In this document: positions 2,052 through 21,757 of the stretch, in pieces | How the letters are laid out: the number at the start of each line of letters is the position of its first letter | Position numbering within the stretch: the first letter of the stretch is position 1 | Source: Nanobdellati archaeon | Lineage (GTDB): Archaea; Nanobdellota; Nanobdellia; Woesearchaeales; GCA-2686295 | Assembly: GCA_014384375.1 (NCBI GenBank) | Contig: JACNFY010000019.1 | Location: 1-36,261, forward strand | Reading direction: 5' to 3' | DNA: 36,261 nt | Notes under the pieces: model-generated | Database searches by the model: none | Seen by the model: only the letters and a program-made list of their open reading frames with translations | Told to the model about the DNA's origin: nothing | Program-made: the position numbers and the translations under genes

Positions 2052-2528
2052 CTAACCACCGGAAGAAATGTTTGTTTTCTTACCAAGACCATGAAACGCG
2101 ATGTAGAAGTTTCCATTCGAGTTGTTGATACAAACTATTCCGTTATCAACATGTATCTCTGACATGAAGCCTGCTGGCTCTATAACCTTTGTTTTAACTA
2201 GGAAAATATTTTCTTGGATATTATCTAATACGCTCTGTCTAACCACTTCTGGAGCAGTAGGGAAATCTGTTCCGTCTTCAATATCTTGTGTGTCTACAAA
2301 GCAGATACTCGCGAATGAGCAAGGCGCTTTCATGGTTTCCTCGTGAAAAGAGCCGTAAGAGGCGTACTTTGTTATGAAGGATTCTAAATTACTCTTGAAG
2401 GTTATCATTTCAACCTTGCAGCCTTTTTCCATCAATCCGCCAATAGCCTTGTAACCAATCAAGAGGATTAATCCTACGACGATTATTGTTAGAATGTATA
2501 TGAAGACTTGCTGTATTTGCCCTTTCAA
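2052..2528 (-). CDS. Small pilin-like secreted/membrane protein
   Basis: A longer reading starts upstream at 2558, but I choose the TTG at 2528. It has GGTGA at optimal spacing (GGTGATTTTTTG, identical to the gene at 1025) and gives MKGQIQQVFIYIL, a KG-Q class III-like signal followed by a hydrophobic helix. The 158-residue product then has a short exported domain with cysteines (GCKVEM, APCSFASICF, GIVCINN). It ends glycine/serine-rich and is followed by the next gene after three bases. Family not recognised; probably a minor pilin-like or anchored surface subunit made with its neighbours. Confidence 0.75.
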   Translation of the reverse strand: MKGQIQQVFIYILTIIVVGLILLIGYKAIGGLMEKGCKVEMITFKSNLESFITKYASYGSFHEETMKAPCSFASICFVDTQDIEDGTDFPTAPEVVRQSVLDNIQENIFLVKTKVIEPAGFMSEIHVDNGIVCINNSNGNFYIAFHGLGKKTNISSGG

Positions 2529-2578
2529 AAAATCACCTGTTATTTTTTGACAATACAAAATCTAAGGATTTTGTTATT

Positions 2579-5500
2579 TTATTTCGCTGTTAATTCAAGG
2601 TCATTTATCAAGTCAGAGACTTCCTTCTTTGTCAATAGCTCAGTGTCGAGGAATTCAAATAGTATCTCTGCAACTGTTTGTTTAGAGACTTGACCTCTCT
2701 TTAATAATTGTGAAAGTATTGCTTTAAAAACATTTGCATCAATCTGCTTTTTAGAAGTAACATTGGCAAATACTTTCATGATGTCTTCGCTGGAAACCTC
2801 TTTCTTATCTACTGTTTTCTTAACCTCTTCATGACTCTGACCTGCTAGCTCTGCAAGCTTCTTGAATATGTCATCCTGACTTAACTCTTCCTCTTCAGCC
2901 TCTTTCTCCTCTTTTTCCTTTTCTTCTCCTTCTATTTCTAATGGTAATTCTTCTTCTTTTTCCTCTGTTTTTTCTTCAGTTTCTTTCTTTTCTTTTTCCT
3001 TTTCTTCTCCTTCTTTCTTAATCATTTCAAGCTCTTGAAACACGTCTTTTCCAATATCTTTCTCTTTCAAATCCTCTTCTTTCTTCAATGTTGATAGCTC
3101 AACATAACCCTCTTTTTTCTTCTCCTTACCTTCTTCTTTTTCTAATGGTTTCTTAGTCTCTTTCTTGGCTTCTTCCTCAAGCTCCTTGACTTTTATTCCC
3201 TTTTCTGCGGTTGCTTGGAATTCCTTCATTAAATCCTTTCTTTTCATCTTTTTCTTATCAGCTGTTTTCTCGAAAACTTTCTTTTCTTCTTCACTAAATG
3301 CTTTAGATTTTTCTTCCTCACCTAACTCTTCCATTACAGGGATTTCTCCTTTTTCATCAATTAGTCTTGGCTCAAGGTGTTTCTCTTTTTGCTTCTTTTT
3401 CTCAATAAACAGAAAACTAAGTCCTGAAACCACCAGAAGTGAACCTATAATTATGAATGTCAATGGTATGAAATTATTCTTTGTTTTTTGTGGTGGATGT
3501 GGTGGAGTGACATCTTTATCTTCCTTAGATGGTTTGCTTGCTTTATCTCTAGGATCTGTTCCTGCTAAAAATTCTTCAAGGTTTGATAAACCATCAAAGT
3601 CAGAGTCTTCATCTGCATCAGATGGGTCGTTAGGATTAAGGTTGTATTTCTCTTCCCAGTAGTCAGGCATGCCATCTTCGTCTGTGTCCTCGTTCACATC
3701 TTCTGAGCAAATATTATAATCACAAAAGTTGGAAATACAGTCAGAATCATAAACACAATCTTTTCCTAACTCGCATGATGAGCAGTCTCCTCCACAGTCA
3801 ATATCTGATTCGTATCCATCTTTGTATTCATTATCACAGCCAGATGCTACACAAACATTTGTTATTGGGTCACATGATTTTGTGCCACAATCATCATTTA
3901 TTGAGCAACTAGATCCTTCTTCTTCACAGACAGCACAATATCCTCCACAGTCAATATCTGTCTCTGTTTCATCCATTACCTCATTGAAACAGTGAGCTGG
4001 ATAAGATTCTTCTGCAGTTTCGTATTCTACAAATTCAGTGTCGCTTTCATTATTATTATTTTTATCATAGACAGTCCAGCAGAAATATGTGTCTTCACTT
4101 ATCAATATTCCATCATCAAGATTATGTGTCTGGCTAGCTACACACTCATCTGAATCAGACGCGAATCCATATCTAAATGTTTGTTGACAACCCGAGTCTG
4201 AGTCAAGACAAATAACCTTTACTAATACTCCTTCGTTAGTAGGCATCAGTGATATGAAAGTATTTGGTTTGGTTACATCACAAACGATAGCAGAATCATC
4301 AGATGCAGTGAAAGTTGCTTCTCCTTCCTCAAAGTTTTCTGCCTCGTCATAGGCAATAACGCTAATTCTGTGGCTTTCTCCTTCTTCCAAATCAATATTC
4401 TCAGAGATAGAGCCTTGTGTAGTAGAGCCTTTAGTTAACACCTCGCCCCCTTTGCTGATAGTGTAGTTGAACCTGTCAATACCACTCTCTTCATCAGTAG
4501 CAGAAACAGTTCCAGAAACCTTATTCAAAGAGCAAGACGGATCTTTAATGTCAATAGCAAGATTAGTTGGTTTAGTCCTATCAATTTCGAATTCAAATGT
4601 TTTTTCTCTGTCAGTGAGAGCTATGCAGCTCACTATGTACGAATAGTCTCCTTCCTCAAGTTCTCCAAGGTTCGCACTATAAATTTTGTTACCTGTGATG
4701 GTTGTAAAATCAGTAGTTGGGGAATTCTCGCCGTATCTGCATCCGCCTGGTGTTTGGATGCTTGTTTCTACTTCGAAGTCAATTGATTGATCATTCGTGT
4801 AGCTTCCTGGGTTGTTCATTTTTATGGAGAATTCTTCTTCAAAAGCAACTCTTAATGTTGCTTGTGCAGGTTCTGACATAAGTCCTGCTAGATTAATACA
4901 TGTTATTTCAAAATCTACAGTCTCCTCTTGGAAGAGTTCTGGAATTGATCTTCTTGCTAGGTTTGTGAAATCTAAGTTTAGGGTGTGCTCTTTCTTGTAA
5001 GCTGAGAAATTCTCTCTATCATAGTTTTCAAACTCATGGAATTGTCCATCCTTAGTGTATGAACAGATAGTTCTGTCACTTGTTGAAACCTGTAAAATGG
5101 TTGTTGGTTCTTGGGTGTCAATAATAGGATTGGGAGTTATAAAAACTCCCAAAGATGGTGGTGTGGCATCATAAGCTAGATAAAGAGATGTAGGGTGCAC
5201 CAATTCGTTTTCATCAACGCATTTCACATAGATTGTTCTCTCTTTTCCATCTTCATCTGGAGAGTCATCATTCAAGTAAAAGCTGTTATCAGTATTTATC
5301 CCTTGTATTGTATGGTATAGTCCTGCGTCAATTTGGAAGAGAAAGTTAAAATTATCTATCTGAGGAGGTGGCACATAGAATGTTGAATATTTGCATGTAG
5401 AGTTTCTCCCTGTTTTCACAACCGCATCGAATACCTCTGTTTGTGAAACTCCTAAGTGTGGAGATTCAAGACTTATTTCCATAAAAGGAGCGTCTACTGT

Positions 5501-19679: not shown

Positions 19680-20075
19680 ATGAAACCAATACATGTATCT
19701 GGAAAAAGGAAGAGAGCAGTTGCAAGAGTAACGTTGAAAAATGGAACTGGAAAAATAACAATTAATAATCTAAATCTCGACTATTATGAACCAAAACTTG
19801 CAAGGATGAAGATAAAAGAACCCCTTTTGTTAGCAAAAGACATAACTGACAGAGTAGATATTGAAGTGAATGTGTTTGGCGGTGGCTATATGAGCCAGGC
19901 AGATGCAGCCAGATTAGCGATTGGAAGAGCCCTCATAAAATACAATTCGAAACTAAAAGATTTATTCCTGAATTACGACAGGCAGTTATTAGTTGCAGAT
20001 GTTAGAAGGAAGGAATGTTCAAAGCCAAACAGTCGCGGCAATGCTCGGTCGAAGCGTCAAAAGTCGTATCGTTAA
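19680..20075 (+). CDS. rps9: 30S ribosomal protein S9 (uS9) with recoded 3' end
   Basis: A small-subunit head protein whose C-terminal tail reaches the P-site tRNA. It starts VSGKRKRAVARVTLKNGTG, has GGGYMSQADAARLAIGRAL, and ends RSKRQKSYR, the typical archaeal terminus, so the protein is intact at 131 residues. The ribosome binding site is GAGGTGA. Of 14 arginine codons, the first 10 are AGA/AGG and the last 4, all after base ~20029, are CGC, CGG, CGT and CGT. That abrupt switch right before an inserted endonuclease gene suggests that the 3' end came in with the insertion. Confidence 0.95.
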   Translation: MKPIHVSGKRKRAVARVTLKNGTGKITINNLNLDYYEPKLARMKIKEPLLLAKDITDRVDIEVNVFGGGYMSQADAARLAIGRALIKYNSKLKDLFLNYDRQLLVADVRRKECSKPNSRGNARSKRQKSYR

Positions 20076-20121
20076 AGCAGTAATAGAATTCTTTTTTAAT
20101 ATAAATTTGATATTAAAATGG

Positions 20122-20159
20122 GTGCTATCCACTAATCACTGGACATCCTCGCATAGCAC
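20122..20159. repeat. Hairpin between rps9 and the endonuclease gene
   Basis: GTGCTAT (20122-20128) pairs perfectly with ATAGCAC (20153-20159); inside, CCA (20129-20131) can pair with TGG (20140-20142). It sits just before the endonuclease promoter. It may end the ribosomal transcript or belong to the inserted element. Confidence 0.4.
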
Positions 20160-20167
20160 TTATAAAG
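20160..20167 (+). promoter_or_regulatory. TATA box of the LAGLIDADG endonuclease gene
   Basis: TTATAAAG, the same core as the rps13 operon promoter, is centred about 25 bases before the GTG at 20189. This predicts a leaderless mRNA and supports the GTG start. An inverted repeat AAAGAA-TGAG-TTCTTT (20164-20179) overlaps the box. Confidence 0.55.
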
Positions 20168-20188
20168 AATGAGTTCTTTAAATCTAGT

Positions 20189-21562
20189 GTGAATTTAACT
20201 AATCAAGAATTGCAAATTAAGAGATTATCTTTTAGTAAATCCAGTTCTAATCTTAGGATTATTTTAAATCCCGAGTTCAAAAAAGAAATTTTTGATGAAT
20301 TATTTAAGAAACATTCTTCTTCAAAATCTTCTGTAATATTAAACATTTCTAGAGGCACGTTATACCATTATAAAAATAATAGGGTAGAATCTGTTTCGTT
20401 CACAATAATTGAAAAAATTAGAAGATTATTAGATTTAAGTAAAGAAGAGATTAATAAGAATTCAATTGAAATTCTAAAGAGTGAAGAAGTCAGGGATAAA
20501 GGTTTAGTTTTCGGAAGGAAATTTAGAAGAATACAATTAAAAAAATTTAGAGAGAAAATTCCGAAAGTCAAGAATATTGTTGAAGATAACTTCTTAAATT
20601 TAGAAAAATGGTTTTCTTTTTATAAGAAATTAATTGATTTCGGATGTAGAGAGATTAAAAGTATTCAACGAGAAAACAACATATTAAAGGTTAAGTATAC
20701 AAATTATGCAAAAGGAAAGAAAAAATTATTTACAATATTGTTACCTAGAAAAATAAAATTAGACGAAGATTTTCAATATTTCTTTGGTTTATGGGTTGGG
20801 GACAAAGCAGGGGGAGGAAGAATTGGAGTGATTAATAAAGAGAAAGTATTAAACCTTTATACTGCAGAGTACTTGAGGAAACTTTATCAAAGACCTGAAT
20901 TTGTTTTATATATCCACAAGAAAACAAAGTTACGTAAGTTAAATTACGATATTGATAAAATAATTAGAATAAATAGTTCGTACCAAGGATACGCTATTTC
21001 TGTTCATGCAACAAATGGTGTTCTTAAGTCATTCTTTGAGTATTTAGAGAAAGATTTAGATGAGTTTCTTAATTTAATTCCAAACAGAAACGTGTTCTTT
21101 GCAGGTCTCTTTGATGCAGAAGGAAACGTTTTTTTAGAAGACCATTGTTTCAGATGGTCTTGTAAGGACCAGATTAATATCAAAATTTTTTCTAGTTATC
21201 TCAAGGAAACGGGTTTGTTTCATAGGTTTGATGGTTCAAACATAGTTACTTACAATAAAGAAGTTTTCTCTAAAAGCATTCTCCCTTTTATAAGGCATCC
21301 AGTGAAAATAAATGATTCACAGTTTATTTGTTTTAAAAAAGGAATATTAAATGAAAGGTTTAAAGAAATTTTAAGAGTTATTAACAATAATCCTGGGAAA
21401 AAAGCTAATGAAATTGCGAAAGCTTTAAAAAAAGTCAAGCTTTTCGCTCAACTAAGATTTTTAGAGGACAATAATTATATTCACAGAAAGAGTTATCCTC
21501 ATAAGATTTATATCACTAATAAAGGTGTGGCTTCTCTTAGCCACGGAGGGAAGGATTTATGA
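20189..21562 (+). CDS. Free-standing LAGLIDADG homing endonuclease
   Basis: A 457-residue protein. The N-terminal ~90 residues contain a helix-turn-helix-like segment (VILNISRGTLYHYKN). The catalytic part carries two LAGLIDADG-type motifs, FFGLWVGDKAGG (198-209, less canonical) and FAGLFDAEGN (304-313, clear), which form the two-helix core with acidic residues. The C-terminal ~65 residues look like a winged helix (NEIAKALKKVKLFAQLRFLE). No intein splicing residues (N-terminal Cys/Ser, C-terminal HN) frame it, so it is not an intein. It begins at a GTG about 25 bases from a TATA box and overlaps the rpoN start codon (ATGA). It splits the normally adjacent rps9 and rpoN, and both flanks look recoded, as expected of a homing insertion. 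Confidence 0.88.
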   Translation: MNLTNQELQIKRLSFSKSSSNLRIILNPEFKKEIFDELFKKHSSSKSSVILNISRGTLYHYKNNRVESVSFTIIEKIRRLLDLSKEEINKNSIEILKSEEVRDKGLVFGRKFRRIQLKKFREKIPKVKNIVEDNFLNLEKWFSFYKKLIDFGCREIKSIQRENNILKVKYTNYAKGKKKLFTILLPRKIKLDEDFQYFFGLWVGDKAGGGRIGVINKEKVLNLYTAEYLRKLYQRPEFVLYIHKKTKLRKLNYDIDKIIRINSSYQGYAISVHATNGVLKSFFEYLEKDLDEFLNLIPNRNVFFAGLFDAEGNVFLEDHCFRWSCKDQINIKIFSSYLKETGLFHRFDGSNIVTYNKEVFSKSILPFIRHPVKINDSQFICFKKGILNERFKEILRVINNNPGKKANEIAKALKKVKLFAQLRFLEDNNYIHRKSYPHKIYITNKGVASLSHGGKDL

Positions 21563-21757
21563 TTATACCTGTCCGCTGTTTTTAGCTGTGGAAAACCAGT
21601 AGGTCACCTCTGGGAAGAATACCAGGAAAGATTGAAGAAGAAAGAAGATACAAAAAAAATCCTTAACTCATTAGGGTTGGAAAGATACTGTTGCAGAGCA
21701 TTATTCCTCGGGCATGTTGATTTGATTGATACTGCAGCACAATTTAAGAAGTTTTAA
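21559..21757 (+). CDS. rpoN: RNA polymerase subunit N (Rpo10), interrupted by a one-base frameshift
   Basis: A small zinc-binding subunit of archaeal RNA polymerase (the eukaryotic Rpb10 counterpart). Starting from the ATG inside the endonuclease stop, the reading is MIIPVRCF then a TAG at 21583-21585. Dropping one T from the run at 21579-21583 restores a perfect 65-residue RpoN: MIIPVRCFSCGKPVGHLW, then the conserved ERYCCRALFLGHVDLID. Zinc ligands CxxC and CC are present only if the frame is restored. The gene is essential elsewhere, so this is a sequence error, a real slippage site, or a lesion left by the endonuclease insertion. The arginine codon before the break is CGC; after it both are AGA. 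GGAGGG upstream serves as ribosome binding site. Confidence 0.85.

What the first reader, a model, noticed from the sequence alone, without database searches (positions are those of the whole stretch)
20029..21583. A LAGLIDADG cassette that appears to carry recoded ends of both neighbouring essential genes
The endonuclease gene lies between rps9 and rpoN, which are adjacent in most archaea. The last four arginine codons of rps9 are CGN after ten AGR codons, and the only arginine codon in the first eight of rpoN is CGC while the two downstream are AGA. The simplest reading is a homing element that replaced the rps9-rpoN junction with a functional but resistant recoded copy. Yeast WHO elements, which carry a recoded FBA1 3' end next to a homing endonuclease gene, are the nearest described parallel I know; I know of no archaeal case at rps9/rpoN.
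Basis: partly seen in the sequence, partly recalled or inferred. Interest (0 to 1): 0.85.

Follow-up and report, generated by a model that had tools for sequence, protein, structure and literature searches.

The report
Homing element that rewrites rpoN's start
A selfish DNA-cutting gene in tiny archaea sits in an essential RNA polymerase gene, supplies a rewritten start for the gene it disrupts, and leaves that gene one base out of frame, so cells seem to need a ribosome slip to make the protein.

Summary
Between rps9 and rpoN lies an intact-looking LAGLIDADG endonuclease gene. rpoN as written is not open: eight codons run into an in-frame UAG and the body follows in the +1 frame. It is the only rpoN match in each of the nine shifted genomes searched. 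The same +1 junction after codon 8 occurs in 12 loci, each linked to this endonuclease, a remnant of it, or a second endonuclease core. One genome deleted the endonuclease but kept its last codons, a covarying RNA hairpin and the shifted rpoN. In a second order, six of six full-length relatives have a truncated rpoN head upstream of the endonuclease and a second head downstream. So the element inserts into rpoN near codon 8 and supplies a recoded 5' end: a natural cleave-and-rescue element, mirror image of yeast WHO elements and fungal mitochondrial mobile ORFs, which replace 3' ends. The rps9-tail recoding is real here but patchy elsewhere; it probably mixes imported flank with loss of rpoN's ribosome-binding site. 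Cleavage, homing and frameshifting are inferred, not shown.

The parts
19680..20075 (+). rps9 (ribosomal protein S9), left flank
   Evidence: single match in G000; S9 found in 57 of 60 genomes searched
20031..20085 (+). Recoded rps9 tail and the stretch after it shared with some other copies (TCGTAYCGNTARAGYAGT..., from 20064); candidate left edge of imported DNA
   Evidence: four CGN codons here; AGYAGT directly after the rps9 stop in 4 of 15 endonuclease-linked loci and 0 of 75 others (counted by eye; test)
20137..20167 (+). Endonuclease promoter region: CACTGGACA motif (20137-20145) and TATA box TTATAAAG (20160-20167)
   Evidence: motif seen by eye in 11 of 13 loci of the window's order; predicted start about 25 nt downstream falls at the GTG (inference)
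20189..21562 (+). LAGLIDADG homing endonuclease gene, 457 aa: N-terminal Cro/C1-like HTH, two-motif core about 190-385 (D205, E311), C-terminal winged helix 386-457; stop TGA overlaps the rpoN start (ATGA)
21527..21544 (+). RNA hairpin GTGGCT-tctctt-AGCCAC inside the 3' end of the endonuclease gene
   Evidence: 5 of 6 pairs show changes on both sides across 12 loci, 86% of cells paired
21545..21558 (+). Purine-rich stretch GGAGGGAAGGATTT before the rpoN start, candidate ribosome-binding site
   Evidence: GGnGGnAAGGA-like in all 12 loci, by eye
21559..21582 (+). Recoded rpoN codons 1-8 (MIIPVRCF), carried by the element
   Evidence: RTC-CGY in 12 of 12 against 2 of 72
21583..21585 (+). Extra T creating in-frame UAG(C); proposed +1 frameshift site and right edge of the element
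   Evidence: the same +1 junction after codon 8 in 12 loci (extra T in 11, C in one)
21584..21757 (+). rpoN body in the +1 frame (SCGKPVGHLW...KKF)
   Evidence: 78.3 bits to PF01194 unshifted, 100.7 bits over positions 1-57 when read with the +1 shift

Best explanation
This is a homing element that targets the 5' end of the essential gene rpoN. Shown by sequence: a LAGLIDADG endonuclease gene sits at rpoN codon 8, followed by a recoded copy of codons 1-8 that replaces the resident start; the junction after codon 8 is one base out of frame in a whole clade of these elements. Inferred: the endonuclease cuts empty rpoN alleles near codons 7-9; repair from an element-bearing donor runs leftward into rps9, which copies in the element and sometimes the donor's rps9 tail; the recoded, base-inserted head can no longer be cut. 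Inferred: RpoN is made by ribosomes that start at ATG 21559, reinitiating after the overlapping endonuclease stop (ATGA), read MIIPVRCF, and shift +1 at UUU UAG C to continue as SCGKP. The hairpin and purine stretch would aid that step. The host then depends on the element's 3' module even after the endonuclease is lost.
For: Site: all 9 strong homologues in the order (352 genomes) lie after rps9 and before rpoN. In a second order, 6 of 6 full-length homologues lie directly before rpoN. Insertion into rpoN: truncated heads upstream of the endonuclease in those 6 of 6, breaking at codons 6-9, the place of the frameshift in the other clade. Rescue copy: RTC-CGY 12 of 12 against 2 of 72; one rpoN match in each of 19 genomes tested. 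Shift in use: codons 1-7 vary at four sites, three of them third positions; codon 8 is F, W, L, V or H, and ordinary heads have F or W in 63 of 72; the body varies mostly at third positions of the +1 frame (990/493/2082); CX2C is kept only by +1. Retention without endonuclease: G153 keeps its last codons, the hairpin and the shift. G252 has the same module behind a different core. Transfer: 1 of 6 genomes of the genus has it; its identity to five f37/f10 copies is 58.8-65.3% (G148: 48.5%) against 56.4-66.4% for S9 of the same pairs, although within families the endonuclease diverges faster than S9. Fold: PI-PfuI Z 17.8, I-DmoI Z about 15.
Against: No cleavage, homing or frameshift product has been measured. 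The frameshifted clade keeps no displaced rpoN head upstream (by eye), so its insertion history leans on the other clade. G621 has CAT C AGC without the UAG, and TGG UAG (3 loci) does not allow re-pairing, so a simple slippage rule does not cover all loci. G147 carries the leader and a second core with rpoN in frame and its head duplicated. In G252 one frame reads SHGGKDL straight into MIIPIRCF without a stop (no usual start codon upstream, by eye), so the stop-start overlap there rests on a second, hand-read leader ORF. The G157 match has an internal stop, leaving a 371-aa ORF. The 12 loci share ancestry, so p values overstate independence. Genomes are metagenome assemblies; G000 is 95.5% complete, and G621 was not searched for a second rpoN.
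Confidence: 0.72

Rival explanations
1. The endonuclease is in an intron of rpoN (group I or bulge-helix-bulge), and splicing, not frameshifting, restores the frame.
For: Group I introns, many with LAGLIDADG genes, occur in rRNA of Woesearchaeota and Pacearchaeota (PMC6125680, passages). The displaced heads upstream in the second order look like 5' exons.
Against: No Rfam intron family at E up to 1 in 12 loci. The displaced heads are truncated, and 4 of 6 have a stop codon within codons 6-9. The frameshifted clade has no head upstream to splice from, and a conserved recoded head sits directly before the body. Bulge-helix-bulge introns were not tested by a dedicated tool.
Confidence: 0.08
2. 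rpoN is broken here: an assembly error, or a dead gene in element-bearing genomes.
For: Singleton rpoN frame breaks at other places exist in genomes without the element (G226, G286).
Against: The same +1 junction recurs in 12 genomes; in six of them it is not a run of four T (TGGT three times, CTTT, GTTT and CATC once each). The body stays conserved. One rpoN match each in the nine shifted genomes and in G153 and G252; G621 was not searched.
Confidence: 0.07
3. An ordinary intergenic homing endonuclease with drifted flanking codons; no rescue function, codon changes due to relaxed selection after the two genes were separated.
For: The rps9 change from AGG to other codons fits loss of the AGGTGA ribosome-binding site of rpoN (AGG in 43 of 75 without and 0 of 15 with the element).
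Against: Does not explain displaced heads upstream in 6 of 6 loci, RTC-CGY in 12 of 12, or the conserved one-base shift and hairpin.
Confidence: 0.08

Closest known systems
WHO elements of Torulaspora and Lachancea yeasts (PMC7282813; passages read)
   Same: Free-standing endonuclease gene beside an essential gene; homing replaces one end of that gene with a resistant version; a gene fragment stays on the far side. Survivors of Who6 cutting included 1-bp TTT to TTTT insertions at the cut site, the same kind of change as the extra T here.
   Different: WHO replaces the 3' end of FBA1 and resembles inteins; here the 5' end of rpoN, with a new start, in archaea, with a permanent frame break.
Mobile ORFs (mORFs) of fungal mitochondria, e.g. 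Allomyces and Glomus atp6 (PMC3630166; passages read)
   Same: An endonuclease ORF brings a divergent copy of one end of the host gene; the native end can remain as a duplicate.
   Different: Carboxy-terminal end, mitochondria; [quoted passage not shown]
Synthetic Cleave and Rescue gene drives (PMC7951863; abstract and outline)
   Same: Cutter of an essential gene tightly linked to a recoded, uncuttable version.
   Different: Engineered with Cas9; spreads because those without it die, not by homing.
prfB (release factor 2) +1 frameshift, CUU UGA C (recalled, from no call)
   Same: Early +1 shift at a stop codon followed by C.
   Different: UAG not UGA, varied codon before it, no ribosome-binding site directly upstream of the shift; no autoregulatory logic evident.

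Membership tests
LAGLIDADG homing endonuclease | Two-motif LAGLIDADG fold with acidic catalytic residues | tested here: met
   FGLWVGD and FAGLFDAEG; D205 invariant, E311 nearly invariant in 11 rows; core aligns to PI-PfuI Z 17.8 (rmsd 2.2, 167 aligned) and I-DmoI Z 15.4. Pfam LAGLIDADG_3 is below cut-off for the window protein (15.1 of 22.5 bits) but above it for L034 and L160
WHO element | Replaces the 3' end of the host gene | tested here: not met
   The 5' end is replaced
WHO element | Fragment of the displaced gene end left on the far side | tested here: met
   6 of 6 full-length loci of the second order; not seen in the window's clade
WHO element | Intein-like protein, related to HO | tested here: inconclusive
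   No intein splicing or zinc-finger family at E up to 1 in Pfam for three endonucleases of this family; Hom_end only at E 0.11 for L160; best PDB sequence match PI-SceI at E 0.015
WHO element | Cuts sensitive, not resistant, alleles | not testable with these tools
   Needs purified enzyme
Programmed +1 frameshift | Conserved site with in-frame stop and continuation in the +1 frame | tested here: met
   11 of 12 loci have UAG C; G621 has CAG C, with UAA three codons later
Programmed +1 frameshift | Shift product made in cells | not testable with these tools
   No proteome or ribosome profiling at hand
Programmed +1 frameshift, prfB type | Shift codon able to re-pair in the +1 frame | tested here: not met
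   Possible for TTT (6 loci) and CTT (1); not for TGG (3), GTT (1), CAT (1) (codons; pairing judged by hand)
Group I intron | Matches a group I covariance model | tested here: not met
   No intron match at E up to 1 in 12 loci
Bulge-helix-bulge intron | BHB motif at both junctions | not tested
   No dedicated tool used; no 5' exon seen in the window's clade

The most novel reading that the evidence does not exclude
A homing element has made an essential RNA polymerase subunit depend on its own sequence. Full-length RpoN is made only if ribosomes finish the endonuclease (or a short remnant of it), restart at an overlapping AUG, and shift +1 after eight codons. This wiring outlives the endonuclease (G153) and survives a change of core (G252), so it may act as an addiction device that resists loss of the element and makes the resident gene uncuttable.
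Probability: 0.55. Interest if true: 0.93.

Novelty: new variant of a known kind. Interest (0 to 1): 0.86.

Why it matters
It would be a natural cleave-and-rescue element in archaea, the 5'-end mirror image of WHO elements and fungal mitochondrial mobile ORFs, in a core transcription gene. It would also be a conserved +1 frameshift needed for a universal archaeal RNA polymerase subunit. Annotation that expects one open frame would mis-call rpoN in such genomes. It offers a testable answer to how homing endonucleases avoid decay after fixation: by tying translation of the host gene to their own reading frame.

Tried and rejected
Readthrough of the endonuclease stop as the source of RpoN: rejected. 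The endonuclease frame equals the body frame in the nine main loci but not in G252 or G621, and that reading loses the first zinc cysteine. A start in the +1 frame: rejected, no ATG, GTG or TTG between the endonuclease stop and SCGK in the nine loci printed (by eye). A -2 shift would give CX3C. Transcript slippage on a T run fails for TGGT and CATC. GGAY-RTCC pairing around the rpoN start: three pairs almost invariant and the fourth paired in 8 of 12, so weak evidence. Leader structure before the endonuclease in f10/f37 copies: the consensus fold was weak on a poor alignment (-2.35), not claimed. Foldseek on the whole model gave mostly winged-helix repressors on top (no match at E up to 0.001); the second look found the LAGLIDADG core.

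Paper searches returned nothing for programmed frameshift + archaea + RNA polymerase subunit + homing endonuclease and for rpoN + frameshift + Woesearchaeota; homing endonuclease + Nanoarchaeota + DPANN gave one paper, on CRISPR classification (listing). Searches gave listings without a paper on this element by title. These cover only open-licence PMC papers.

Counts: the 75 'without' rps9 rows include the relic genome G153; the 15 'with' rows include L060, where rps9 is 3.7 kb away, and L165 of the second order. The 72 in-frame heads are distinct sequences among loci held (close relatives, best and weakest PF01194 matches), not a random sample; nine endonuclease-linked loci were left out beforehand. 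L062 (contig end, rpoN on another contig) was left out of the rpoN counts. The pattern that collected the 12 heads already requires RTCCGY and AGC, but all 12 loci put in, found earlier by family match or by a looser pattern, passed it. G126 was not re-checked for a shift. The match list was cut; positions were seen only for listed rows, the 36 weak matches and those. The phylum pattern (371 genomes) misses heads like G271 (SCNK).

Full report
WHAT IS THERE. The window is a contig of a small archaeal genome (1.27 Mb, 39 contigs). Named relatives carrying the endonuclease are Woesearchaeota, Pacearchaeota and Nanoarchaeota metagenome assemblies. Genes run rps9 (19680-20075), a 457-aa endonuclease ORF (20189-21562), rpoN (ATG 21559) and leuS (21873; gene names from sequence, leuS recalled).

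THE FRAME BREAK. Reading rpoN from its ATG gives MIIPVRCF and then UAG; the rest, SCGKPVGHLW to KKF, is in the +1 frame. PF01194 matches only from profile position 7 (78.3 bits). Read with TTTT as one step, the protein matches positions 1-57 with 100.7 bits. There is one rpoN match in each of 19 genomes searched. In that set the match begins at position 7 or 8 in the nine genomes with the window's clade of endonuclease, and at 1 or 2 in the other ten: five congeners and two family members without it, and G014, G353 and G354, which carry more distant copies.

HOW WIDESPREAD. A screen of the order (329 of 352 genomes with rpoN) and a look at weak matches (36 genomes) added G153 and G252. A pattern search of 371 genomes of the phylum gave five matches: G000, G153, G154, G291 and one new, G621. 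In all, 12 loci share the junction: G000, G272, G271, G151, G154, G157, G148, G291, G153, G252, G352 (ARS1172, NZCU01000016.1) and G621. Codon 8 is TTT in six, TGG in three, CTT, GTT and CAT in one each; the extra base is T in 11 and C in G621; AGC follows in 12 of 12, against 27 of 72 ordinary heads.

THE HEAD IS TRANSLATED (inference from substitutions). Across the 12 heads, codons 1-7 vary at four sites, three of them third positions, the fourth I/V. Codon 8 varies F, W, L, V, H; ordinary heads have F 41, W 22, M 6, Y 2, V 1 of 72. The body differs mostly at third positions of its own frame (990, 493, 2082 pairwise differences by position). Only a +1 step keeps the CX2C zinc motif.

IT IS AN INSERTION INTO rpoN. 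All nine strong homologues in the order lie between rps9 and rpoN. In the order of G354 (200 genomes), six full-length homologues sit directly before rpoN. All six have a second, truncated rpoN head upstream of the endonuclease, for example ATG ATA ATC CCT ATT AGA TGT, broken at codons 6-9, followed in most by a TATA-like box; the head joined to the body is downstream. There that head often begins with ATT or ATC behind a GGA-type site, whereas 25 of 30 sampled heads of that order start with ATG. Of the five others, one (G390) has endonuclease sequence upstream; four have none detectable at E up to 0.01 but share an AGGA(3-4 nt)TAAAAT context by eye, as does one ATG head (L195). The insertion point equals the frame break of the window's clade. 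The simplest reading is a target around codons 7-9.

THE 3' MODULE IS KEPT WITHOUT THE ENDONUCLEASE. G153 lost the endonuclease, yet keeps its last codons as a small ORF (MTITNKGSKVLLRGGKDL, read by hand) with its own ATG behind GGAGG, ending in the ATGA overlap, then the shifted rpoN. G252 has another core (no Pfam match at cut-off) but the same module; a 2-nt loop insertion and a 1-nt insertion change the peptide, and a leader ORF still ends at ATGA (read by hand), although another open frame without a usual start reads through into the head. The hairpin covaries: 5 of 6 pairs with changes on both sides; for the whole structure 17 cells with both-side changes against 7.2 in shuffles. Part of that can reflect relatedness.

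MOVEMENT. In the window's genus 1 of 6 genomes has the element, and the five others show the uninterrupted junction. Its endonuclease is 62.5% identical to that of G272 while S9 is 60.8%; within families, S9 is 77-86% and the endonuclease 61-73% for G271/G272, G151/G154 and G151/G157. This favours transfer between families, though G271 (58.8 against 66.4%), G148 and G291 go the other way.

THE rps9 TAIL. Last codon CGN in 9 of 15 linked loci and 16 of 75 others; AGG in 0 of 15 and 43 of 75. AGGTGA just before the rpoN ATG looks like its ribosome-binding site (inference), so losing AGG is expected once an insert separates the genes. The extra CGN codons of the window, and a shared stretch after the stop codon in 4 of 15 linked loci (0 of 75), suggest imported donor flank. 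So the left boundary looks like a variable conversion tract, not a fixed resistant copy.

MECHANISM. The enzyme is predicted intact: helix-turn-helix, two-motif core, winged helix. The rest is inference: cut near codon 8, repair from the donor, rescue by the recoded head. In the WHO study, some survivors of cutting had TTT to TTTT insertions at the cut site (PMC7282813, passages); here the codon-8 TTT has gained a T. The frame break may thus have begun as a resistance scar, later made tolerable by ribosomal shifting. 'Savior' indels with compensating frameshifting are a described class (PMC5009743, passages).

VERDICT.

Noticed in passing
L145 (G147), reverse strand about 2433-4187: Second endonuclease core behind a clade-A leader and N-terminus; rpoN head in frame (TTTTTCATG) and duplicated, with a TATA-like box before the head. 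Recent repair or assembly duplication.
   Followed up: partly
L142 and L145 endonuclease ORFs: Their core (FEVLGLLQAEMGK, FMRGIIAGESNVEF) has no Pfam nuclease match at E up to 1; it looks like a divergent LAGLIDADG protein that replaced the usual core between the same flanks.
   Followed up: partly
L037, L038, L039, L040, L041 leaders before the endonuclease ATG: Leader of about 150 nt with AATCACC...GGTGATT-like and other complementary stretches that could hide the endonuclease start codon.
   Followed up: partly
L163, L164, L165, L166, L170, L181 and L191, L192, L201, L210 (rpoN starts): Non-AUG (ATT or ATC) starts of rpoN behind GGA-type ribosome-binding sites in the second order, with or without the endonuclease; possible footprints of lost elements.
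   Followed up: partly
L148 (G209), reverse strand 3705-4281: rps9 tail and rpoN body joined by a deletion that removes the rps9 end and about 20 rpoN codons; assembly error or repair scar.
   Followed up: no
L143 (G226) and L144 (G286): Singleton rpoN frame breaks at other positions without an endonuclease in the stretch fetched.
   Followed up: no
G000:C9:22737-22994 (L001): LAGLIDADG_3 match inside a 1049-aa open frame elsewhere in the same genome, perhaps an intein.
   Followed up: no
L142 (G252), reverse strand 3-935: Another LAGLIDADG-like ORF (MSLGDGS, GFFDTDGS) a few genes upstream of the rpoN element.
   Followed up: no
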